Below are positions 11,395-39,321 of a stretch of 39,321 nt of DNA, in pieces. Position 1 is the stretch's first letter. Each line of letters opens with the position of its first letter. The DNA is from Methanonatronarchaeales archaeon (lineage in GTDB: Archaea; Halobacteriota; Methanonatronarchaeia; JAANXF01), in the NCBI GenBank assembly GCA_018263395.1, contig JAANXF010000020.1:7114-46434 (forward strand), written 5' to 3'. The position numbers and the translations under genes are program-made. The notes under the pieces were generated by a model. It was not told the DNA's origin, ran no database searches, and worked only from the letters and a program-made list of their open reading frames with translations.

Positions 11395-13277
11395 TCAGCG
11401 CCTGAGCTTAGTCGGAATGTGGTCGTAGGCCTTCAGCACGTCGCTCCTCGTGACGATGCCCACCAGGCAGCCCTCCTCGTCGACTATCGGAATCCTGCCG
11501 ATGTCGTTGTTTTCCATCCTGTCCACGATGGAGAGAAGGTGCGTCCCCGGATTCGCAACGACCGGGTCCCTCGTCCCTATCAACTCTACGGGCGTGTCTA
11601 TCTTCACCTGCCCATCGCTTGGAAAGACCTCATCGAAGGACCTGCCCCTTATGGCCCGTGGGAGGTCGGAGAGCGAGAGGATGGCTACGGGGCTCCCCTC
11701 CGGGTCCACCACCGGCAACCCGTTTGTGCCCGGTCTTCCTGAAGACCTCTAAGGCGTCACCTAGGGTGGTTCCCTCCGGAAGTCTGTCCACATCCCTGGT
11801 CATCACGTCCTTCGCAACCAGGTCCTCTAGGCTGCCTATACGGCGCTCCTGGATGGTTATGCCCTTGTCCCTGAGTTCCTCGGTGTAAATGGTTCCCCGG
11901 TCCAGCAGGTGGTTGGAGCCTTCGCTCCCCAGCACGCATACGACCAGAACAGGCAAAATAATGCTGTACTGCCCCGTCAGCTCGAAGATCATAAGGGTGG
12001 CCGTTAGGGGGGCGCTGGCGGCGGCCGCGAAGACCCCCGCTATCCCGACGAGCGCGTAGGCACCCGCCGGAGCGGTTCCCGGCACCAGCGCGTGCACGGC
12101 GACTCCGAAGGCTCCGCCAGCCATCGCCCCGATGTAGAGCGAGGGCGAGAATATTCCGCCGGAGCTCCCGCTGCCCACGGTCATAGAGAAGCCGACTACC
12201 TTCATTATCGCCAGAATAACCATGATGGCGATGGCCAGCTCACCCGAGATGCTCGACCTGACGGTATCGTAACCGACTCCCATCAGCCAGGTTGTGGAGG
12301 TGTGGCCACTTTCGCCAGTTATGTAGGAGGTCGCCAGGATGGTACCGCCCAGGAGGGCGCCACCTATCGCGGGCTTGGTGAACCCGGGAACGTCGAGCCT
12401 TTCGAAAAAGTGTTCCATCCCGTAGAGGACCTTGACCACCAGTACGCCGACGATGGCGACCACGACCCCGAGGACCATGTAGAGGGGAAGCTCCACGATT
12501 GGAGTGACCATCTGGTACTGCACGGGCACCAGAAAGTCCCTGATACCTAGGTTCGGTGTCAGCTGCAGCAGGGACCTCGCCACGGCGGTGGCCATTACCG
12601 CGCTCAGCACCACGGAGATAACGTGGCGCAGGTAGTACTCCGCCAGCAGTACCTCAAGGGCGAACATCACCCCCGATAGGGGTGCGTTGAACGTGCCCGC
12701 GATCCCCCCCGGCTGCACCGGCGGCCACCAGCGTCCTGGCGTGCTTGGAGTCTATGAATCTGCTGAAGTAGGAACCCGCAGTGCTGCCTATCTGGACGAT
12801 TGGGCCCTCGCGGCCCAGGGACCCTCCACTCGCGATCGCTATGCTCGACGCGACCGTCTTGTAGAGCGCTATAAGGGGGTTTATCCTCCCGCCTCGGATC
12901 AGCATAGATTCCAGGACCCTGGGCACGCCGTGCCCCTTAACCTCCGGCGTGGTAAAGTGGATTATCCCTCCCACGACGAGGCCCCCCACAGCCGGTATCG
13001 CGATGTACCGCAGGTCTCCGAAGGCCCCCAGCAGGTCGAACAGGTTGCTGAACGGGGTTAGCGTGAACTCGACGTTACCCGGGTTCAGGTTGTCTCCGAA
13101 GAAAACCTCCTGAAAAATCCATATGGTCGCCCTGAACCAGACCGCGCCGAGCCCGGCTATGATTCCCACGACTATCGCTATAAGGCTGAGCTCGAGCTCC
13201 TCCCTGCGCGATGTTGTCCTTGACCAGCTCTCGTCATCCTGAGCTCGGCCGGTATCTGATGGCTCTGCTGCTCTCAA
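11395..13277 (-). pseudogene. ClC-family chloride channel/transporter with C-terminal CBS pair, split by two apparent +1 frameshifts
   Basis: GGSLGREGPIVQIG, FNAPLSGVMFALE, GSGSSGGIFSPSLYIGAMAGGAFG, then the CBS segment VVDPEGSPVAILSLSDLPRAI...GIVTRSDVLKAYD, spread over three frames. The breaks are at a C7 run (12704-12710) and near 11730. Confidence 0.85.
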
Positions 13278-13677: not shown

Positions 13678-14647
13678 GGCTATATTGCAACCCTTTGTTT
13701 GTAAGGCTTGGTGGCGTGGTACAGCAGGTTTAGGAGGGTGCGTAAGGAGGCTGTTTCTAGGTTGTGTAGTGTGCATTTGATTATTTGTTCTTTGTACTGG
13801 TTGAACCATTTGTGGGAGTAGACTCCTGCGCCGTAGTTGTTCTTTAAGCAAAAGTTGACGGTTTCGTTCATGTTTCTCTGGTTGTACTCCTCTTCATTGA
13901 TTTGTTCGTTAAGTTTTTCCTGTTTTTCGGTGAATTCTCTGTAAAGTATTACGGGGTCGATGTCGTTGTTCAGGCAGAGGTCTCTTAGGTCTTGGTCGTC
14001 GAATCCTTTGTCTCCCAGTAGTTGTTCGATGAGTTCGAGGTTTCGTTTGATGAGGGAGGGAGCGATTTTGGTGTCGTGTTTCCTGGTTGTGGTTAGGTAT
14101 ATGTCTAGGATTGCGAGGGTTTCGGGGTCGACGAGTAAAGTGTTTTTGAGGCTGCTGATTTTTAGCCCGGTTCTCTGTGTATAGTGGCGGGAGGCGTGGC
14201 TTCGGTCGAACCCTGTGGAGTCTATGGCTACGGTTCCGCTTGTGTCCAGCTTCTTCAGAGTCATAGCCAGGATGGCTCTCCAGACCTGGGTAGCTATCTT
14301 GTTGAAGACTCTGCAAAGGGTTGAAGGATCGGGTACACGATTCAGGCCGATGTTTTTTCTGACACGGATCCATTCGACCAGTTTTTCAACAATTTCTTCG
14401 TAACCGGCATCTTCCTTTATTTTTAGACAGATACAGACGGCGTGTTGACGTAAAGTGTAGTCTTTTCTGGAGTATTTTGAGGAATACTTCGGCAACACGC
14501 GGCTCGCTAACTGGTGCAGATCGTTTGACAATTTCGAAAACTCTGTCTCCGGCAACTCTTCAATACTGAATTCAACCAAGTCCATCCCCTCCAGGAGATT
14601 AAGCCATCTATAGGTTTAGGCAATAATTAAAGGGTCGCAATAAGGCC
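13678..14647 (-). mobile_element. IS5-family insertion sequence, 970 bp, with TIRs and candidate 8-bp target duplication
   Basis: TIRs GGCTATATTGCAACCCTTTG / GGCCTTATTGCGACCCTTTA; flanking direct repeat AAAAAAAC at 13670-13677 and 14648-14655. Confidence 0.85.
13680..14585 (-). CDS. IS5-family DDE transposase
   Basis: AIDSTGFDRSHASRHYTQRTG, LLGDKGFDDQDLR, YREF...RNMNETVNFCLKNNYGAGV; the stop codon lies inside the TIR. Confidence 0.9.
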   Translation of the reverse strand: MDLVEFSIEELPETEFSKLSNDLHQLASRVLPKYSSKYSRKDYTLRQHAVCICLKIKEDAGYEEIVEKLVEWIRVRKNIGLNRVPDPSTLCRVFNKIATQVWRAILAMTLKKLDTSGTVAIDSTGFDRSHASRHYTQRTGLKISSLKNTLLVDPETLAILDIYLTTTRKHDTKIAPSLIKRNLELIEQLLGDKGFDDQDLRDLCLNNDIDPVILYREFTEKQEKLNEQINEEEYNQRNMNETVNFCLKNNYGAGVYSHKWFNQYKEQIIKCTLHNLETASLRTLLNLLYHATKPYKQRVAI

Positions 14648-31090: not shown

Positions 31091-31347
31091 CTAGCCGTTT
31101 TCCAATCCGAAGGAATCGTGCTCTGCTACGGTGTCGACTTTATCTTTGGATTCACCTGGCCGGAAGTTGTCGAAAACTCCCCGGCGCCGGTGCACGACTT
31201 CGACCTCTAGTTCACCGTCGACCACTTTCCACCTCGCGACGTCTCCGTCCCGAATATCGAGCCACTGTCCCTCAACTCCAAGGCCGACAGCAAATCGAGG
31301 TTAACAGCCACGTTTCTATAATAACTCATAGTACGTACATCCCCCAT
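31091..31347 (-). pseudogene. AbrB/SpoVT-like antitoxin, apparent frameshift
   Basis: MGDVRTMSYYRNVAVNL / RFAVGLGVEGQWLDIRDGDVARWKVVDGELEVEVVHRRRGVFDNFRPGESKDKVDTVAEHDSFGLENG* across two frames. Confidence 0.5.
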
Positions 31348-31522: not shown

Positions 31523-33727
31523 ATGCACGAGTGCCCGTGGCCGAGCTGCGAATACGAGGGAAGAGAGGAGGAGCACCTCGAACAGCACCTCGACGCGAAG
31601 CACGGCGGGGACAGCCCTCCGGGGCGGCCCGCCGCCCCCTCCCGTGAGCGGCAGACCGGTGCCCTCTCATCGTCGGTCTCCCTGCTGCTCGTCGGCGTGG
31701 CGGTCCTGGTGGGGAGCTACCAGCGGGTCCAGATGGGGACCCTCGATATGCTTCAGAAGTTCGACCCCTACGAACACTTTCACCTCGCCAGGTACTGGTT
31801 TAACGAGGGGGAGTACATGGTCCGGGACGCGCTGCTGTTCCCTGCCCGCAGCGGCCAGCACCCGGGCGTGGGTTACCCGCCGCTGACGCACTTCGAGCCC
31901 GCTGCGCTGACCAGGATCCTGAACTCGATAGGTTACGACGCCAGCCTCGTAGAGGTAATGGCCTTCCTCCCCGTCGTGCTGATGGCCCTGACCACCGTGG
32001 CGATGTACTTCTTGGGCAGGGAGGTCTACGACGCAAAGGTCGGCGTCATCGCCGCCCTGCTCACCGCCACGTTTCCGCCCTTCATCGAGGTCGGGCGCGC
32101 CGGGGCCTACGACACCAACCTCTACCTGTTCCTCTTCACCACCCTGACCCTGGCACTGTTCGCCAGGTCCCTCAACCAGACCGTTCGGCGGGACCGGCTG
32201 TACTGGGGCGCACTCGCCGGCATCTCTCTCGGCCTCTACGCCCTGCACTGGCGGGGGTACGTCATGTTCGCAGGATTCCTCGGCCTCGGCATCATCCTGT
32301 ACACCGGCATCGCCTCCATCACCGATAAACTGGAGCCCGACACCACGTATTCTTTCATCGGGATACTGGCCGCCGTCCCCATCATGTCGTTCTGGTATCT
32401 CCCCATGCATCACGTACGGGATATCTACGCCGTCACGGCAGTCGGTCTCCTCGGCCTCCTCCCCATCATCGCGTACAGATTCTCCGACTTCGTGGAGGAA
32501 AGGTTCGGGATACGGAACGGCAGAAACGTTCGGCATTACGTCTCGGCCGTCGCACTTATCACAGCAGCACTTACGGTGTACTACGCCGTTCAGTTCGGCC
32601 GCCTACCGGGCGGACTCAGCGTTCCAGGAATTGGAATGTTCGACACGTCGGGCAGTTACCTGACGACCATCGCCGAACTCCAGTCCGCATTCGAGGGAGG
32701 GAATCCGCTGAAGCGCTCCTTCGGTATGCTGGGGGAGCTCGTGCTTCCCGTGGCCGGCCTCCCGGTTCTCTTCGTCGGATACAAGATCTGGAGGGATTTC
32801 CACCCCAGACGGTTCCTCGAGCTCACGTTCGTCATGCTGACGTTCCTCATGATGTTCGAGGCGGCCCGGTTCCTGGAGCCGTACGTGGCCGTGGTCACCC
32901 TGACCCTCGGAGGCATGTTCGGGTGGGCGCTTGACGCAGCCGGCATCGAGGAACTCGGAGAGACCGTGGAGGCCATCCCCTTCGCTAGGGTTACCGCCGT
33001 AGCCGTGGTTCTGGTATTTCTCTCTACCTCAGCGATGCCCATAGTAGCCGCAAACGGGAATCTGGGGAGGTCCATGCCCGCGGTTTACTGGGAGTCGAAC
33101 GGGGCGTGGGTCTCGACGTATGGCCACATGGCGCAGTCGCCGGAGTTCGACGGGTCCACCGCCGTCATGTCGTGGTGGGACTACGGGTTCCCGGCGAAGG
33201 CCCTCTCGGAGGTGCAGTACGTCAGCGACAACACTCAGGTAAACATAGATGTACCTGCGAAGTTCTACGTCATGCAGAATCTTACTGAGGGACGCCTCTA
33301 CCTCACCGAGGAGCTCAAACGGGAGAGGGGGGAGGACGTGGACTACGTCGTGGGCAACAAGTACCTCGCGTTCGGCAAGTGGCACGCCGTCGTCACCGTC
33401 GCCTCAGTTGAGACCGAAATGGACACCCCGAACTTGTTCGACGATAAACGTGAGCAGGGGGAGGAGCAATGGATCATGTCTAACCGGGGCGTCGGCAGCG
33501 AGGCCGGGAAGAGCAACTACTACAGGCTCTCCTTCTACAACGCGTCGAGGTACGGCGTCGGCGACGAACCGTTCCCGGGGTACACCATCGCGTACCAGTC
33601 CCCGCAGTGGTACATCGAGACCGACGAGGGCCTCAGGGTGGCCATGAAGGGCAGGATAGACGAAGCCGGCTACCCGGGGTCCAGAGTGGTGGGGCCCGCC
33701 ATAACGATTTACGAGCTGGAGAAGTGA
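31523..33727 (+). CDS. aglB: oligosaccharyltransferase AglB (STT3 family) with N-terminal C2H2-like zinc finger
   Basis: FDPYEHFHLARYW, GAYDTNLYLF, STAVMSWWDYGFPAKALSEVQYVSDN (WWDYG). N-terminus MHECPWPSCEYEGREEEHLEQHLDAKHGG. Confidence 0.9.
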   Translation: MHECPWPSCEYEGREEEHLEQHLDAKHGGDSPPGRPAAPSRERQTGALSSSVSLLLVGVAVLVGSYQRVQMGTLDMLQKFDPYEHFHLARYWFNEGEYMVRDALLFPARSGQHPGVGYPPLTHFEPAALTRILNSIGYDASLVEVMAFLPVVLMALTTVAMYFLGREVYDAKVGVIAALLTATFPPFIEVGRAGAYDTNLYLFLFTTLTLALFARSLNQTVRRDRLYWGALAGISLGLYALHWRGYVMFAGFLGLGIILYTGIASITDKLEPDTTYSFIGILAAVPIMSFWYLPMHHVRDIYAVTAVGLLGLLPIIAYRFSDFVEERFGIRNGRNVRHYVSAVALITAALTVYYAVQFGRLPGGLSVPGIGMFDTSGSYLTTIAELQSAFEGGNPLKRSFGMLGELVLPVAGLPVLFVGYKIWRDFHPRRFLELTFVMLTFLMMFEAARFLEPYVAVVTLTLGGMFGWALDAAGIEELGETVEAIPFARVTAVAVVLVFLSTSAMPIVAANGNLGRSMPAVYWESNGAWVSTYGHMAQSPEFDGSTAVMSWWDYGFPAKALSEVQYVSDNTQVNIDVPAKFYVMQNLTEGRLYLTEELKRERGEDVDYVVGNKYLAFGKWHAVVTVASVETEMDTPNLFDDKREQGEEQWIMSNRGVGSEAGKSNYYRLSFYNASRYGVGDEPFPGYTIAYQSPQWYIETDEGLRVAMKGRIDEAGYPGSRVVGPAITIYELEK

Positions 33728-33768
33728 CGGGACCGTCGCTGAATCCCCGCGACGACCGGGGCCCACCG

Positions 33769-33875
33769 GGCCTCCACGGACTCCGCACCGAGACACTCCG
33801 GTCCTTCAAAAAATCTGGGTCACCGTCCTTACAGAACCCACGCAGGTGACCGGGCACGGCGAGGAACGGGTCCCC
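33769..33875 (-). repeat. repeat copy 1 of deacetylase-like C-terminal coding segment (degenerate)
   Basis: DNA alignable by eye to 37928-38053: cctccacg-a--ccgcaccg-g...ggtgaccg-gca-cggcgaggaacgggtc; peptide traces DPFLAVPGH and FFEGPECLGAESVEA. Confidence 0.5.
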
Positions 33876-34012
33876 ACCTCCATAGCGCCCTCCACCACAG
33901 ATCGGAGGCTCCTTGGGCACCCCGGAAAGCGTCAGGTCAAAACTCGAGGAGGATGTCGGTTCGAAGCCTGCACGAAAACAGTTTTACCTCGGACCGCAGA
34001 ACTGGTACCGTA

Positions 34013-34288
34013 ATGGAGTGGATCGTGGAGACAGAGGACGTGATGGGGGGAGCTCCGAGGATAAAGGGTCGCCGCATCTCTGTCCTTCAGGTTTACGAAA
34101 TGGTGTACGAGGGCGACCTGGAGCCCGAGGAGGTCGCCGAAAAGTACGACCTGGACATGAGCGCCGTCTATGCCGCACTCCAGTACTACTTCGAAAACGT
34201 GGTGGAGATGGAGGCTCTACGGGAGAGGTACGCCGAAATCGAGAGAGAGGCCAGAAGGGACGGAGTAACTTCTCCGAAACCGGCCTGA
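34013..34288 (+). CDS. DUF433 antitoxin (module 1)
   Basis: MEWIVETEDVMGGAPRIKGRRISVLQVYEMVYEGDLEPEEVAEKYDLDMSAVYAALQYYFEN. Confidence 0.85.
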   Translation: MEWIVETEDVMGGAPRIKGRRISVLQVYEMVYEGDLEPEEVAEKYDLDMSAVYAALQYYFENVVEMEALRERYAEIEREARRDGVTSPKPA

Positions 34289-34291
34289 CCT

Positions 34292-34623
34292 ATGGAGAAA
34301 ACGGCTCTCCTCTGTGATGAACACGTCGACACCGTCCTCGTCTCTCTGCTCCGAAACTCCGGGTACGACGTGGAAACGGTGGAGGAGGACCTGGGTAAGG
34401 GCCTGAACGACGAAAGGATCGAGACCTACCTCGGAAGCACGGGAAGAGTCCTGGTGACCAACGACAGAGACCTGAAAACGCCCCCTCTACGGGGCTACTG
34501 TTCTACCACGATCAGAACGAGGAACCGAGAACGCTTTTCAGGGCAATAGAGTCCATAAACAGATACATCGATCCCGACGAGATCTCGGGAAAAGTATTCT
34601 TCATCCCTGGCGGATGGGTATAA
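34292..34623 (+). pseudogene. DUF5615 PIN-like toxin (module 1), one apparent -1 frameshift
   Basis: LLCDEHVDTVLVSLLRNSGYDVETVEEDLGKGLNDERIETYLGSTGRVLVTNDRD / frame change near 34472 / APSTGLLFYHDQNEEPRTLFRAIESINRYIDPDEISGKVFFIPGGWV*. Confidence 0.75.
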
Positions 34624-34691
34624 ACCGGCGTCAACTTTCCCTCCTCCCTTTGAACCCGTAAGGACCTGGTTAAGAGCAAACCGTCCCTCCA

Positions 34692-34839
34692 CTACCAGCC
34701 AGCCAGCATCTCCACCTCCCGCACCTCCACGAACCCCGCCCCGCGGCCCTTCATCTCCCCGAAGAACCTCTCCAGCACCACCAAATCCTCGTCACTCCCA
34801 AACTCCCACTGGTGCCCAAACATCGCGAGGAACGGCTCC
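34692..34839 (-). repeat. repeat copy 2 of deacetylase-like C-terminal coding segment
   Basis: REPFLAMFGHQWEFGSDEDLVVLERFFGEMKGRGAGFVEVREVEMLAGW*, closely similar to copy 5. Confidence 0.75.
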
Positions 34840-34848
34840 CGGACACCG

Positions 34849-34965
34849 AGAGAATGGGACGAAAACACGGCCATACTCAGGGGAGAAATCAGGTTCATCG
34901 ACGGAGTTAGGCTCTCGTTCACGGAGTTCTACAGGAGGGAGAGACGGATCAGGGTGAAGGATTTA
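34849..34965 (+). pseudogene. possible TumE/DUF6516-like toxin fragment
   Basis: REWDENTAILRGEIRFIDGVRLSFTEFYRRERRIRVKDL, reminiscent of TumE; no complete ORF. Confidence 0.25.
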
Positions 34966-34994
34966 AGGGTACCGATGACTCATACCTATTCACC

Positions 34995-35432
34995 GTGCCT
35001 GCTTCCACGTACAGCGTAACGTTTACAGGAAGGGTTCAGGACATCGGTTTCCGTGACCTCGTCGAGAAGGAGGCTCAGACCCTCGGCATACGAGGTATCG
35101 TCTATAACCGTGGGAGGGACAGGGTCCAGGTGCTCTGCCAGGGCATAGGTGAATCCGTCCAGGAACTCGTCGAGGGCGTCGAGAAGAAGGCACCGAACCT
35201 CGACGCAGATGTGGGGGACATCGAGATGCAGGAGATAGCGGCGGATGTCCCGGACCTGCCCACGTTTACCAAGGTCCAGAGTGAAACCCTCGGAGACATC
35301 GGTCGAAAGCTGGACGACGGCGTCGACGTACTCAGGAGCCTCGACGAGGGACAGGGAGAGCTCGTGGAAGGACAAAGGGAACTCGTGGAGGGGCAGAGAG
35401 AGATGATCGACGTCCTGAAAGAGAGGCTCTAA
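34995..35432 (+). CDS. acylphosphatase domain with C-terminal coiled-coil extension
   Basis: YSVTFTGRVQDIGFRDLVEKEAQTLGIRGIVYNRGRDRVQV, followed by heptad-like GQGELVEGQRELVEGQREMIDVLKERL. Confidence 0.85.
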   Translation: MPASTYSVTFTGRVQDIGFRDLVEKEAQTLGIRGIVYNRGRDRVQVLCQGIGESVQELVEGVEKKAPNLDADVGDIEMQEIAADVPDLPTFTKVQSETLGDIGRKLDDGVDVLRSLDEGQGELVEGQRELVEGQREMIDVLKERL

Positions 35433-35525
35433 GGTTAAGCACCGGTCCAGGAGAGGCCGCGGACCTACTTCCCGCACCCACCATCGGCGCCACCCTTCGT
35501 ACGGATACACAGCGCCATGGCCAGG

Positions 35526-35680
35526 TGCCCCTCGCCCTGGAACTCCCACCGGTGACCGAACATGGCGAGAACGGTTCCACTCCCACCTTCACGGCCGCCT
35601 CACAACACAACCCCAGGAACCCGTCCAGACCCACCTCCCTCAACGTGTAGGTATCTAAGAAGGGGATCTCGAAGTGAGGC
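35526..35680 (-). repeat. repeat copy 3 of deacetylase-like C-terminal coding segment (frameshifted)
   Basis: PHFEIPFLDTYTLREVGLDGFLGLCCEAAVKVGVEPF, then LAMFGHRWEFQGEGHLAMAL in the +1 frame. Confidence 0.65.
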
Positions 35681-35851
35681 ATCTGTGTCCCCTCAGTTAG
35701 GGGGCAGAACATGAAGAAGCTCACAAATACCCCGGAGTCCAAGGCCACATTTCTGCTATCGCTCCCTGGACCGAACGTTCGAGACCGTTCCCGTATCTCG
35801 GGAGGAATCTGGCAAGGAAGAGTTATTACCTGTTACAGATAATTCATAGTC

Positions 35852-36370
35852 ATGTGTGCTCCCGCGGAATCGACCAGGCACCCTATCGACCGGGCAACGG
35901 CCCTGACCGATGTGCTGGAAACCCCGGCGCTCGCCAAGATGTATACCTACGTCCGGCGAAACAGGTCCTCCACGGTCCGGCAGATCGTGGACGAACTCGG
36001 CGTTCCACAGGGAACAGCCTACGACTACGTTAAGAGACTGGAGAGCACCGGCTTTATCGCTAAGACAGGGGAGGAGCGCCCCTACGAGTACAAAGCGAAG
36101 GACGTAACCCTTACCCTCTCCGCCGACGACGAGAGCCGCACAATCACTCCGCAGCTCGTCGCAGCAGCAGCCCTTCGCGAAGAAAACGGCGACATCGAGC
36201 TCTTCGTGGAGCGCCACGGCCTGGACGGCCTCGCGACGGCCCTGGAATACGCCGAGGAATACGTGAAAGGTGAGATAAACCACCGGATCGCGGCCCGCGA
36301 ACTCGGAATCTCTCCCCTGGAGGCCGAAATCATCCTGCAGGCCCTGGAACCGGTAGTCCCCGAGGAATAG
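35852..36370 (+). CDS. wHTH transcriptional regulator/antitoxin
   Basis: MYTYVRRNRSSTVRQIVDELGVPQGTAYDYVKRLESTGFIAKTGEERPYEYKAKDVTLTL. Confidence 0.8.
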   Translation: MCAPAESTRHPIDRATALTDVLETPALAKMYTYVRRNRSSTVRQIVDELGVPQGTAYDYVKRLESTGFIAKTGEERPYEYKAKDVTLTLSADDESRTITPQLVAAAALREENGDIELFVERHGLDGLATALEYAEEYVKGEINHRIAARELGISPLEAEIILQALEPVVPEE

Positions 36371-36375
36371 TCCGG

Positions 36376-36901
36376 ATGGGCACGGCGTACGTGGCGGACA
36401 CCGGGTATTCGTCCGGTGCGGCGATCCGGACAACGAGAAGCACTGCCTCCTCCGGAAGGCCCTGCAGGAGACCGGGACAAAACTCCTGATCCCCAACAAG
36501 TATACGAGGAACTCGGTGGCGACCCATCGGCCGAGGGATACCCGTCCGGCGAAACCCGGTGGAAGCAGGGACTCGAGGAGGGATGGATCGAGGTCAGAAC
36601 CCTCGACTACAGCGCCCCTGTGGTCGCCAGAACGATGGACGCCACCACCCGCTTCATAGCCAGCTAGACGAACCGGAAGCTCGACGAAATCGAGAAGGCC
36701 GACGGGGCACTCGTAGGCCTCGCGGCCCAGCTCCTCGACACGGGCGAGGCCGACACCGTCGTCCTCCTCACCACCGACAAACCCGCCGGACACGCCGCCG
36801 AAACGGTCCTGCCTCGACACGGATTCAGGGACCGAATCGAGTACCGACACGTCGGCCCCGGGTACACCGAAAACCTGTCGAAGGAGGACTTCACCCGATA
36901 A
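36376..36901 (+). pseudogene. PIN-domain ribonuclease-like toxin, two frameshifts plus one in-frame stop
   Basis: MGTAYVADTG / VFVRCGDPDNEKHCLLRKALQETGTKLLIP / VYEELGGDPSAEGY...FIAS*TNRKLDEIEKADGALVGLAAQLLDTGEADTVVLLTTDKPAGHAAETVL...FTR*; TAG at 36665-36667. Confidence 0.65.
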
Positions 36902-36943
36902 CTCCCCTTAACTCGAAGAAACCTCGCTACCCAACGGTAACCG

Positions 36944-37085
36944 AAGCCAGTCCCGGCACCTCCCTCACCTCCACGAACCCCGCACCGAGACCCACCAGCT
37001 CATCGAAGAATCCATTCAGGGTATTCGAATCATCGGAGCCGGGGCTGCTCAGAGTATACGTCTCCAGAAGACGGAGCCTGAAGTG
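36944..37085 (-). repeat. repeat copy 4 (internally deleted)
   Basis: FFDELVGLGAGFVEVREVPGLASV end is retained; the other end (gctcagagtatacgtctccagaagacggagcctgaagtg) aligns with copy 3; the middle is lost. Confidence 0.6.
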
Positions 37086-37203
37086 GACAAACAGATCTTT
37101 CGGCCCCGTATAAACTTCTCATCAAATGAAGACCCTCATACTTCCGGTGGACGAGTCAGCAAACAAACTTAAGCAAAAAGGGAGAGATACCGTACTCAAG
37201 AAA

Positions 37204-37482
37204 ATGGCGGAGATAGTGAAAACGGAAGGGGTGCTGAGCGGAAAGGCCCGCATAGAGGGAAAAAGGATCTCCGTATACCAAATAGGGGAGATGGTCCTCG
37301 AAGCAGGGTTCTCACCCGAGCGCGTGGCCGACCAGCTCGACCTTTCCCTCGGAGAGGTGTACTCCGCCCTGGCCTACTACTACGAGCACCTCGACGAGAT
37401 GGAGGAAATACGGAAACGATGGGCCAAAATCGAGGAGGACCTGAAGAGGGACTCTAAAGCTCCGAGAAAGGTGGAGCATTAA
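37204..37482 (+). CDS. DUF433 antitoxin (module 2); an upstream start at 37126 is possible
   Basis: MAEIVKTEGVLSGKARIEGKRISVYQIGEMVLEAGFSPERVADQLDLSLGEVYSALAYYYEH. Confidence 0.85.
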   Translation: MAEIVKTEGVLSGKARIEGKRISVYQIGEMVLEAGFSPERVADQLDLSLGEVYSALAYYYEHLDEMEEIRKRWAKIEEDLKRDSKAPRKVEH

Positions 37483-37485
37483 TCC

Positions 37486-37824
37486 GTGGCCCTGGCCTTC
37501 TTGGCGGATGAAAACGTCAACTTTGAGTACGTTAATGCCCTCCGCATGAATGGGTACGAGGTCGTCTCCACGGAAGAATACGGAAAAGGGGAGAAGGACG
37601 AGAACGTTCTCGAAAGGGCAGCCGATGAAGAGTTGGTGCTCATCACGAACGACCTCGACTTCCGAAGCAAAGCAGAGGAAATGGAGCACTCCGGCGTTGT
37701 TCTCTACCGGGACCAGAGAATCGATCCCGGAAGATTTGTAACGGGAGTAAAGGCTATTGAGAGGGCCTACACCGAATCGGGGCTACATAACAGGTTGGAG
37801 TGGCTGGAGCAATGGATACGATGA
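37486..37824 (+). CDS. DUF5615 PIN-like toxin (module 2), intact
   Basis: LAFLADENVNFEYVNALRMNGYEVVSTEEYGKGEKDENVLERAADEELVLITNDLDFRSKAEEMEHSGVVLYRDQ. Confidence 0.88.
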   Translation: MALAFLADENVNFEYVNALRMNGYEVVSTEEYGKGEKDENVLERAADEELVLITNDLDFRSKAEEMEHSGVVLYRDQRIDPGRFVTGVKAIERAYTESGLHNRLEWLEQWIR

Positions 37825-37892
37825 GCCTCCGGACAGAAAACACCGAACCGTCGGAGCCACACCACACGGCCGTCTCAGCCTGAAGATCAATC

Positions 37893-38165
37893 ACCAGGCC
37901 TCCGCCCTAACCCCGGCCAACCCCGGCACCGCCCGTACCTCCACGAACACCGCACCGCGGCCCTCCAGCTCCTCGAAAAACCTCTCCAGCAGCACCAGGT
38001 CCTCGTCCGCCCCGAACTCCCACTGGTGACCGAACGCCGCGAGGAACGGGTCGGTGGAGAGTTCGGTGGAGATCTCACGACACAGTTCCACGAACCCGTC
38101 CAGACCCGTCCCCCTCAGCGTGCAGGTGTCCAGGAACGGGAACTCGAAACGGTTAGCGGCCCTAC
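37893..38165 (-). repeat. repeat copy 5, longest copy of the deacetylase-like C-terminal coding segment
   Basis: NRFEFPFLDTCTLRGTGLDGFVELCREISTELSTDPFLAAFGHQWEFGADEDLVLLERFFEELEGRGAVFVEVRAVPGLAGV. Confidence 0.7.
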
Positions 38166-38356
38166 GTCTGACTCTGCCGGACTCTCCGGATAAGGAGTTC
38201 TCAACGATTACATCCGTCGCGCCGAAAGGACGCTGAACAATAAAAAGTTGAAACGCTTCAGACAGATCGCAGAACTCCCGACCCATTGAGAGACACCATT
38301 CAGGAACCCGAAGAGATTCAAAAAGACCTTTTGCCCTCAACGATTATCAAAGCAGA

Positions 38357-39321
38357 GTGAAGGCCCTCCACACCCCGGCGCGGTTCCACCCCTTCACGGG
38401 TGGCGTCGAGAACCACGTCCGGGACCTCGGGAAGGAACTCGTAGAACTAGGCGTGGAGGTCGAGGTGCTCTGCGCGAGGGAGCCGAAGGACCTGCCGAGG
38501 AGGGACGTCGTGAATGGCGTCAAGGTCGAGAGGCTGACGTATCGCGGAAAAATCGCCAACACCAACATAATTCCCGCACTCCTTCCGGAACTCCTCAGCG
38601 AAGAGGCAGACATAATCCACACCCACGTACCCACGCCCTGGAGCGCCTCCTGCAGCTCCATCGCCTCCCGTATAAAAGACGTACCGCTCGTCGTGACGTA
38701 CCACAACGACGTAACCGGGGAGGGCCTCGCATCCCCCATCGCCAGGGCGTACAACGCCACCCTCCTGAAGGAGACCCTGGACGCCGCCGACCGCATCGTC
38801 ATCACGCAGCCGTCCTACCTCGACTACTCGGACCACCTGAAGCCCTACGGGGAGAAGGTGGAGGTAATCCCCAACGGCGTTGACGCGGAGAGGTTCCACC
38901 CGCCTGAGGACGCTGACACGGGAGAAGGGGTCTTCTTCCTCGGCGTCCTAGACAGGTATCACCGCTACAAGGGCCTCGACGTGCTGCTCGAGGCCTTCAA
39001 GATCGTGCTGGAAGGGGTGACGAATCTGGTGATCGGCGGCTCAGGCGAGCTCGTGGAGGAGTACAGGGAACTCGCCGAGGACCTCGACATCTCAGAAAGC
39101 GTCGAATTCGTAGGATTCATCCCAGAAGACGAGTTGCCTGAGTACTACCGGAACTGCGAGGCCTTCGCCCTCCCCTCCCTCTCCTCGGAGCAGGAGGGCT
39201 TCGGCATAGTTCTGCTGGAGGCCATGGCCTCGGGCAAACCCGTAATCACCACCGCGGTGGCCGGAGTATCGAGCGACGTGGAGGAGCGCGGAGCCGGCAT
39301 CGTGGTGGAGAAGGGGGACCC
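38357..39321 (+). CDS. GT4-family glycosyltransferase (truncated at window end)
   Basis: HPFTGGVENHVRDLGKEL, VIPNGVDAERFHP, YKGLDVLLEAF, LSSEQEGFGIVLLEAMASGKPVITT. Confidence 0.9.
   Translation, partial: MKALHTPARFHPFTGGVENHVRDLGKELVELGVEVEVLCAREPKDLPRRDVVNGVKVERLTYRGKIANTNIIPALLPELLSEEADIIHTHVPTPWSASCSSIASRIKDVPLVVTYHNDVTGEGLASPIARAYNATLLKETLDAADRIVITQPSYLDYSDHLKPYGEKVEVIPNGVDAERFHPPEDADTGEGVFFLGVLDRYHRYKGLDVLLEAFKIVLEGVTNLVIGGSGELVEEYRELAEDLDISESVEFVGFIPEDELPEYYRNCEAFALPSLSSEQEGFGIVLLEAMASGKPVITTAVAGVSSDVEERGAGIVVEKGD

What the first reader, a model, noticed from the sequence alone, without database searches (positions are those of the whole stretch)
33735..38190. Cassette-array-like layout: five minus-strand copies of one coding repeat alternate with plus-strand TA/accessory modules
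Seen directly: degenerate copies of the same segment (peptide core 'PFLDTxTLRxxGLDGF...PFLAxFGHQWEF...LERFFEELxGRGAxFVEVRxV') occur at about 33769-33875, 34692-34839, 35526-35680, 36944-37085 and 37893-38165, all on the minus strand. Between consecutive copies sit DUF433/DUF5615 #1, an acylphosphatase (plus a possible TumE scrap), HTH/PIN, and DUF433/DUF5615 #2, all on the plus strand. Strict alternation, uniform orientation and TA-rich cargo resemble integron or superintegron cassette arrays or repeat-mediated capture. Here, however, the repeat is a decayed gene end rather than a known attC. Whether the repeat is a recombination substrate or only the residue of a tandem gene family interrupted by insertions is inference.
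Basis: partly seen in the sequence, partly recalled or inferred. Interest (0 to 1): 0.75.

Follow-up and report, generated by a model that had tools for sequence, protein, structure and literature searches.

The report
Gene-end scars between stacked toxin–antitoxin modules
In this archaeal genome, small toxin–antitoxin gene pairs have been stacked side by side, and each is separated from the next by a leftover end of the same neighbouring gene; the pattern recurs at about seven places with a different repeat each time, which suggests repeated one-sided DNA uptake rather than an integron.

Summary
Five minus-strand copies of one coding segment alternate with plus-strand modules at 33.7–38.2 kb. 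It is not an integron: no attC consensus, hairpin excess, integron integrase or shared recombination core was found. The 'deacetylase' identity of the repeat is not supported, and the repeat has no relative in the collections searched. The main result lies outside the window. The same layout recurs in this genome at C17 (two loci), C18, C7, C20 and C22. Each locus has its own repeat, usually the 3' or 5' end of a local gene, around or between toxin–antitoxin or other accessory modules. At C7 an intact gene and its displaced 3' fragment differ over 128 codons with dN/dS about 0.16 and no frameshift, so they diverged as working genes before being joined. Best explanation: stepwise accretion. Incoming DNA carrying a module plus an allelic neighbour joins by homology on one side and illegitimately on the other, leaving the resident gene's end as a scar. 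Closest precedent: orphan-immunity arrays of Vibrio T6SS clusters (PMC5361080). The recombination route is inferred, not shown.

The parts
33745..33875 (-). repeat copy c1, decayed 3' end of gene X (two frames)
   Evidence: blastn to c5 and c4, E 6e-6 and 2e-5; two collinear profile pieces of 7.9 and 7.1 bits
33953..34288 (+). DUF433 gene #1 (antitoxin-type)
   Evidence: Pfam PF04255, 1.3e-13
34292..34623 (+). DUF5615 gene #1 (PIN-like), frameshifted; first 85 codons open to 34549
   Evidence: Pfam PF18480, 3.1e-9; ORF list
34695..34838 (-). repeat copy c2, keeps the natural 3' end, 5' part lost
   Evidence: 84% DNA identity to c5 over 126 nt, E 7e-36; 103.3 bits
34995..35432 (+). acylphosphatase with a C-terminal extension
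   Evidence: Pfam PF00708, 1.4e-16
35516..35679 (-). repeat copy c3, frameshifted; starts MPHFEIPFLDTYTLR, 3' end lost
   Evidence: 71% DNA identity to c5 over 154 nt, E 8e-16; 64.1 and 32.3 bits
35852..36370 (+). TrmB-type HTH protein with DUF7437
   Evidence: Pfam PF24218, 1.3e-31; PF01978, 5.5e-11; distant relative in the C18 array
   Evidence: frameshifts and an internal stop; no Pfam match to the 83-aa frame
36939..37085 (-). repeat copy c4, both ends kept, middle deleted
   Evidence: 81% DNA identity to c5 over 73 nt, E 2e-15; 27.8 and 4.5 bits
37126..37482 (+). DUF433 gene #2
   Evidence: Pfam PF04255, 2.1e-12; 71% aa to the C17 copy
37486..37824 (+). DUF5615 gene #2, intact
   Evidence: Pfam PF18480, 2.8e-16
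37891..38154 (-). repeat copy c5, longest copy, open frame, no remaining 5' part of gene X
   Evidence: reference copy; 163.6 bits; glycosyltransferase gene starts at 38357
31523..33727 (+). left flank, AglB-type oligosaccharyltransferase (name by eye; conserved in both same-class genomes)
   Evidence: search of the two same-class genomes, E 6.6e-155 and 2.4e-133
38357..39319 (+). right flank, GT4 glycosyltransferase, cut by the contig end
   Evidence: Pfam PF00534, 1.3e-33; contig C13 ends at 46434 = window end

Best explanation
The array is a stack of small accessory modules (mostly toxin-antitoxin type) built by successive additive insertions next to gene X, a minus-strand gene of unknown function. 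In each event, incoming DNA from a divergent relative carried a module next to its own version of X. It recombined by homology on the X side and joined illegitimately inside the resident X on the other side. The resident 3' end of X was left as a scar, and the new module plus a fresh X was placed beyond it. Repetition gives scar-module-scar-module with uniform orientation. Shown: the five scars; the same layout at other loci with different genes; the divergence of an intact gene and its displaced fragment under coding constraint (C7). Inferred: the one-sided recombination step, the donor, and that X was once full length. Whether each module works as a toxin-antitoxin pair is inferred from family names only.
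For: (1) Five copies confirmed. (2) The layout recurs with unrelated repeats: C17:58.7-64.3 kb (upstream region plus 5' end of a DUF2283 gene; DUF433/DUF5615, MazE/PIN, TumE and NTase/HEPN modules), C18:35.7-39.5 kb (C-terminus of a protein ending in a membrane segment, four copies; PIN and HTH modules, TumE modules beside it), C17:1.8-3.1 kb (PIN), C7:13.0-15.5 kb (AbrB-like/PIN), C20:7.1-9.5 kb (helicase-like ORF), C22:37.8-41.2 kb (HicA/HicB-like). (3) Close same-contig repeat pairs are 19 direct against 2 inverted in 507 kb, intragenic domain repeats included. (4) 4 of 10 PIN-type loci are bracketed, against 3.5% of sampled sequence (P about 3e-4; in the part of the sample not chosen by PIN, 3 of 4, P about 2e-4). 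(5) C7: 128 codons, dS 1.31, dN 0.21, no stop or frameshift, Fisher 1e-14; c2-c5 dS 0.49, dN 0.16, Fisher 0.009. (6) In C18 all four copies keep the natural stop-codon end while their upstream ends differ. (7) Module and repeat histories are decoupled. (8) A mechanism of this kind has been proposed for T6SS immunity arrays (PMC5361080).
Against: In C13 the 5' truncation points cluster (c1 and c2 at PFLA; c3, c4 and c5 within a few codons of FEFPFLD), which random joining does not predict and which would also fit a short standalone gene starting there. c4-c2 and part of c3-c5 show no coding constraint. No empty or intermediate locus exists in the genomes held: the nearest relatives belong to another family and the flanking synteny was not found there. 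One-sided recombination is not directly seen, and the donor is unknown. The genome is a fragmented assembly (22 contigs, 78% complete), so local mis-assembly is not excluded by reads.
Confidence: 0.6

Rival explanations
1. Residue of a tandem family of gene X (or of a short ~90-aa gene) into which accessory modules were inserted independently; the copies then decayed.
For: All copies have one orientation; c3 has an ATG exactly where homology to c5 and c4 begins; three copies start within a few codons of each other; c2-c5 shows coding constraint.
Against: Does not explain six other loci with other repeats around accessory modules, nor why mainly one gene end persists in each array, nor the single intact gene plus one fragment at C7 and C20.
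Confidence: 0.2
2. Site-specific cassette array: integron-like or integrase-driven insertion at gene ends, with the repeat as recombination site.
For: Alternation, uniform orientation, toxin-antitoxin cargo; integrons are reported in archaeal MAGs (PMC9668308); the C17:1.8 kb and C20 copies share tracts of about 60-75 nt that are near-identical.
Against: No attC consensus in three arrays; no hairpin excess in c1-c5 (z from -0.4 to 1.1); the repeat differs at every locus; no shared identical core at the truncated side; one tyrosine recombinase gene in the held genome, on contig C6, 22 bits to the integron integrase model against a cut-off of 265; no integrase seen among the modules.
Confidence: 0.08
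3. Segmental tandem duplication of a [DUF433-DUF5615-X end] unit followed by replacement of the cargo in the other units.
For: c2 and c5, the closest copies (84% DNA), both follow a DUF433/DUF5615 module.
Against: Modules #1 and #2 are only 51% identical in DUF433, while #2 is 71% identical to a copy on contig C17 beside an unrelated repeat.
Confidence: 0.07
4. Assembly artefact: alternative strain haplotypes of one variable locus joined in series.
For: The genome is a fragmented, incomplete assembly, and diverged copies are what strain haplotypes would give.
Against: No runs of N at the joins read; c1, c3 and c4 carry decay (frameshifts, internal deletion); seven loci would have to be affected.
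Confidence: 0.05

Closest known systems
Orphan immunity gene arrays of Vibrio cholerae T6SS clusters (PMC5361080)
   Same: Successive addition of horizontally acquired modules at one locus; the resident gene is displaced and its 3' part can be left behind; one-sided homology (homology-facilitated illegitimate recombination) proposed, no integrase known.
   Different: There the modules are effector-immunity pairs at secretion clusters in a bacterium and the displaced gene is the effector itself. Here the scar is the end of an unrelated neighbouring gene, the cargo is toxin-antitoxin or other accessory genes, several loci are affected, and the host is an archaeon.
Rhs loci with strings of orphaned 3' regions (as cited in PMC5361080)
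   Same: Arrays of displaced 3' gene regions.
   Different: Rhs tips are the variable part of one toxin gene; here the repeated part is the constant one and the cargo varies.
Integron and superintegron cassette arrays, including archaeal ones (PMC9668308)
   Same: Alternation of a repeated element with diverse cargo, uniform orientation; toxin-antitoxin cassettes are known from Vibrio superintegrons.
   Different: No attC or integron integrase found; the repeat is coding, locus-specific and truncated at different points.
Small variable segments flanked by direct repeats in bacterial species (PMC2884548)
   Same: Short variable segments; 10-18% of them flanked by direct repeats; illegitimate recombination invoked.
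   Different: Those repeats were detected from 11 bp up at segment borders in strain comparisons; here they are diverged repeats of about 70-360 nt, mostly gene ends, partly in multi-copy arrays.

Membership tests
Integron / superintegron | attC sites (R'' RYYYAAC ... R' GTTRRRY) between cassettes | tested here: not met
   zero matches in the C13, C18 and C17 arrays, both strands; no hairpin excess in c1-c5
Integron / superintegron | integron-type tyrosine integrase | tested here: not met
   one PF00589 gene in the held 78%-complete genome, on C6; integron integrase model 22 bits against cut-off 265
Integron / superintegron | mobile single-cassette circles | not testable with these tools
   needs reads or PCR
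Integrase-targeted islands at gene ends | constant crossover core at the truncated side of every displaced end | tested here: not met
   flat identity profile in C13 and C7, no common core across loci; truncation points vary
Accretion by homology-facilitated illegitimate recombination (T6SS-type arrays) | displaced partial copies of a neighbour gene between modules | tested here: met
   C13, C18 (57, 58), C17 (51, 52), C7 and C20 (56)
Accretion by homology-facilitated illegitimate recombination (T6SS-type arrays) | copies come from different lineages, not from local duplication | tested here: inconclusive
   met at C7, dN/dS about 0.16 over 128 codons; c2-c5 about 0.33 on few sites; no signal for c4-c2 and queD
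Accretion by homology-facilitated illegitimate recombination (T6SS-type arrays) | intermediate and empty states in related strains | not testable with these tools
   no close relative in the held genomes; only two other genomes of the class
Polysaccharide deacetylase C-terminus (identity of gene X) | detectable homology to NodB-type deacetylases | tested here: not met
   no Pfam match, no PF01522 in the genome, hhalign probability 6% over 13 columns

The most novel reading that the evidence does not exclude
The organism has a dedicated, still active way of capturing toxin-antitoxin modules that uses the end of whichever gene lies next to the landing site as a homology anchor, so that each locus grows its own repeat family and becomes a progressively better target for more modules: an integron-like array without an integrase-specific site.
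Probability: 0.12. Interest if true: 0.85.

Novelty: new variant of a known kind. Interest (0 to 1): 0.6.

Why it matters
How toxin–antitoxin modules spread between chromosomes without an integrase or transposase is an open question. Here one genome holds several loci in which the scars of insertion are still readable, most of them preserving a piece of the displaced neighbour gene. The scars give orientation, order and a way to date events. If strain data confirm it, this would extend to archaea and to toxin–antitoxin modules a stacking process so far described for T6SS and Rhs effector loci in bacteria, and it offers a simple signature (diverged direct repeats of a neighbouring gene end bracketing a small module) to search for elsewhere.

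Tried and rejected
Searches for relatives of the repeat: own genome (copies c2-c5 only), 40 relatives (one insignificant hit), 393 genomes of the phylum by profile (none outside this genome), GTDB r220 by profile patterns and by the FGHQWEF motif (only chance matches), viral contigs, plasmids and phages, solved structures. Deacetylase hypothesis: collected NodB loci and compared C-termini; only the GHxWE motif is shared. Other same-class genome G002: many short direct repeats, but the ones read are not gene ends, so generality in the class is not shown. Synteny with G001 and G002: AglB is present but the flanking glycosyltransferase was not found near it. Some repeat pairs from the survey were excluded as intragenic or paralogous, for example ATPase-domain repeats at C17:20.5 kb, nucleotidyltransferase paralogues at C17:54.8 kb and the carB halves at C22:29.7 kb. 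Literature: no description of interleaved gene ends in toxin-antitoxin arrays was found in the library searched.
Full report
The finding. The window is G000:C13:7114-46434 and ends at the end of its contig; the genome held is 1.17 Mb in 22 contigs, 78% complete. Only two other genomes of the same class were among the relatives, in another family, with about 40% identity in AglB.

Check of the observation. Self-comparison of the region recovers five copies on the minus strand. Extents are c1 33745-33875, c2 34695-34838, c3 35516-35679, c4 36939-37085 and c5 37891-38154. DNA identities to c5 are 84% (c2, 126 nt), 81% (c4, 73 nt) and 71% (c3, 154 nt); c1 pairs are 66-78%. A profile from c2, c3 and c5 gives 163.6, 103.3, 64.1 + 32.3 and 27.8 + 4.5 bits for c5, c2, c3 and c4, and two adjacent pieces of 7.9 and 7.1 bits for c1; the best of 300 shuffled regions reaches 10.0.

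Anatomy. Each copy lies tail-to-tail with the preceding plus-strand gene and head-to-head with the next. c2, c4 and c5 share the same end (VEVRxVxxLA, then a stop within a few codons). The upstream sides differ: c1 and c2 begin at PFLA, c3-c5 at FEFPFLD; c4 lost the middle, c3 lost the end and is frameshifted. No copy continues into a longer gene: beyond c5 only about 200 bases remain before the glycosyltransferase. The family of X is unknown. No relative of X was found elsewhere.

The pattern is genome-wide. Other DUF5615 loci of this genome were read, and two of the three stretches also carried direct repeats around or between modules. A wider sample (507 kb, most of it the first 20 kb of each contig plus whole C13 and C17), seven PIN loci and a further 176 kb gave seven loci in all. 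C13 is the finding. C17:58.7-64.3 kb has a repeat of about 180 nt made of the upstream region and the first codons of a DUF2283 gene, in five degenerate copies between DUF433/DUF5615, MazE/PIN, a TumE pair, NTase/HEPN and the intact DUF2283 gene. C18:35.7-39.5 kb has four copies of the C-terminus of a protein ending in a membrane segment (PENGATFLxAALAGLLVLGGVYAWRRG), between a PIN, a MazE/PIN and an HTH module, with two TumE modules beside it. C17:1.8-3.1 kb has two copies of a coding end around a PIN gene and its upstream partner (the glycosyltransferase reading of that end and the RHH name of the partner are by eye). C7:13.0-15.5 kb has an intact 260-aa gene and its 3' fragment around an AbrB-like/PIN pair and an RHH-like ORF. 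C20:7.1-9.5 kb has an intact queD-like gene and its 5' fragment around a helicase-like gene (both names by eye). C22:37.8-41.2 kb has a 108-nt repeat, not a gene end but lying just upstream of an hsdR-like start, around a HicA/HicB-like pair and a DprA-like gene (names by eye). Of ten PIN-type loci (one 614-aa hit, also present in both same-class genomes, left out), four are bracketed by such repeats, while bracketed sequence is 3.5% of the sample (P about 3e-4; restricted to the part of the sample not chosen by PIN, 3 of 4, P about 2e-4). These P values treat loci as independent, and the bracketed set was defined after looking.

What made the copies. At C7 the intact gene and its fragment differ at 35, 19 and 58 first, second and third codon positions over 128 codons, dS 1.31, dN 0.21, without stop or frameshift (Fisher 1e-14). 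A local duplicate decaying in place would accumulate amino-acid changes freely; these two copies diverged as working genes and were joined later. c2 and c5 show the same tendency (dS 0.49, dN 0.16, Fisher 0.009); c4-c2 and queD do not. Module and repeat histories are separate: DUF433 #1 and #2 are 51% identical, and #2 is 71% identical to a copy on C17 next to an unrelated repeat, while c2 and c5 are 77% identical in protein. So the units are not simple duplicates, and the cargo does not travel with the repeat.

Mechanism. These facts fit stepwise addition: donor DNA carrying a module and an allelic neighbour gene recombines by homology on the gene side and joins illegitimately inside the resident gene on the other side, which keeps the resident end as a scar. 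The natural end is shared and the cut end varies, as seen most clearly in C18. A site-specific enzyme predicts the reverse, a constant cut end with an identical core; none common to the loci is seen. Kirchberger et al. proposed this mechanism for orphan immunity arrays in V. cholerae and noted the parallel with strings of orphan Rhs 3' regions (PMC5361080). Shown here: the scars, the recurrence, the coding-constrained divergence at C7. Inferred: the recombination route, the donors, the former full length of X.

Against an integron. No attC consensus in three arrays, no folding excess in c1-c5 (one C17 copy has z -3.0), no Rfam match, and one tyrosine recombinase gene in the held genome, on another contig, far below the integron integrase cut-off. 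Archaeal integrons exist (PMC9668308), so this was a fair test.

Limits. The clustering of truncation points in C13, and the ATG at the start of c3, leave room for X being a short gene of its own and the array a decayed tandem family. No strain variants were available. The assembly is fragmented; a read-level check was not possible. The same-class genome G002 also has many short direct repeats, but those read are not gene ends, so the phenomenon is shown for one genome only.

Noticed in passing
G000:C17:58686-64306 (L075 3687-9001 and beyond): A larger parallel array: five toxin-antitoxin-type modules separated by degenerate copies of the upstream region and 5' end of a DUF2283 gene.
   Followed up: partly
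G000:C18:33659-39458 (L109 3660-9459): Third array: PIN, MazE/PIN and HTH modules separated by four copies of the C-terminus of a protein ending in a membrane segment, with two TumE modules next to it.
   Followed up: partly
G000:C7:13025-15512 (L089): Intact 260-aa gene and its displaced 3' fragment (74% DNA, dN/dS about 0.16) around an AbrB-like/PIN module, next to a dapB-like gene.
   Followed up: yes
G000:C20:7118-9480 (L100): Intact queD-like gene and its 5' fragment around a helicase-like gene.
   Followed up: partly
G000:C22:37840-41171 (L122): 108-nt direct repeat around a HicA/HicB-like pair, a DprA-like gene and a phosphoribosyltransferase-like gene, next to an hsdR-like gene.
   Followed up: partly
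window 31107-31263 (-): Stretch 82% identical to the MazE-type antitoxin gene of the C17 array, apparently a decayed antitoxin upstream of aglB.
   Followed up: partly
window 11630-13277 (-): Chloride-channel-like gene split over two overlapping frames (11630-12718 and 12654-13277), so probably frameshifted (name by eye).
   Followed up: no
window 13680-14585 (-): Intact-looking 301-aa ORF resembling a DDE transposase (by eye).
   Followed up: no
G000:C13:3939-5273 and G000:C5:6518-7852: Inverted 82-nt repeats with the same spacing on two contigs, perhaps one duplicated element.
   Followed up: no
G000:C18:47748-47957 (L110): Near-perfect tandem duplication with a period of about 94 bases (99% over 116 nt) close to another PIN gene.
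   Followed up: no
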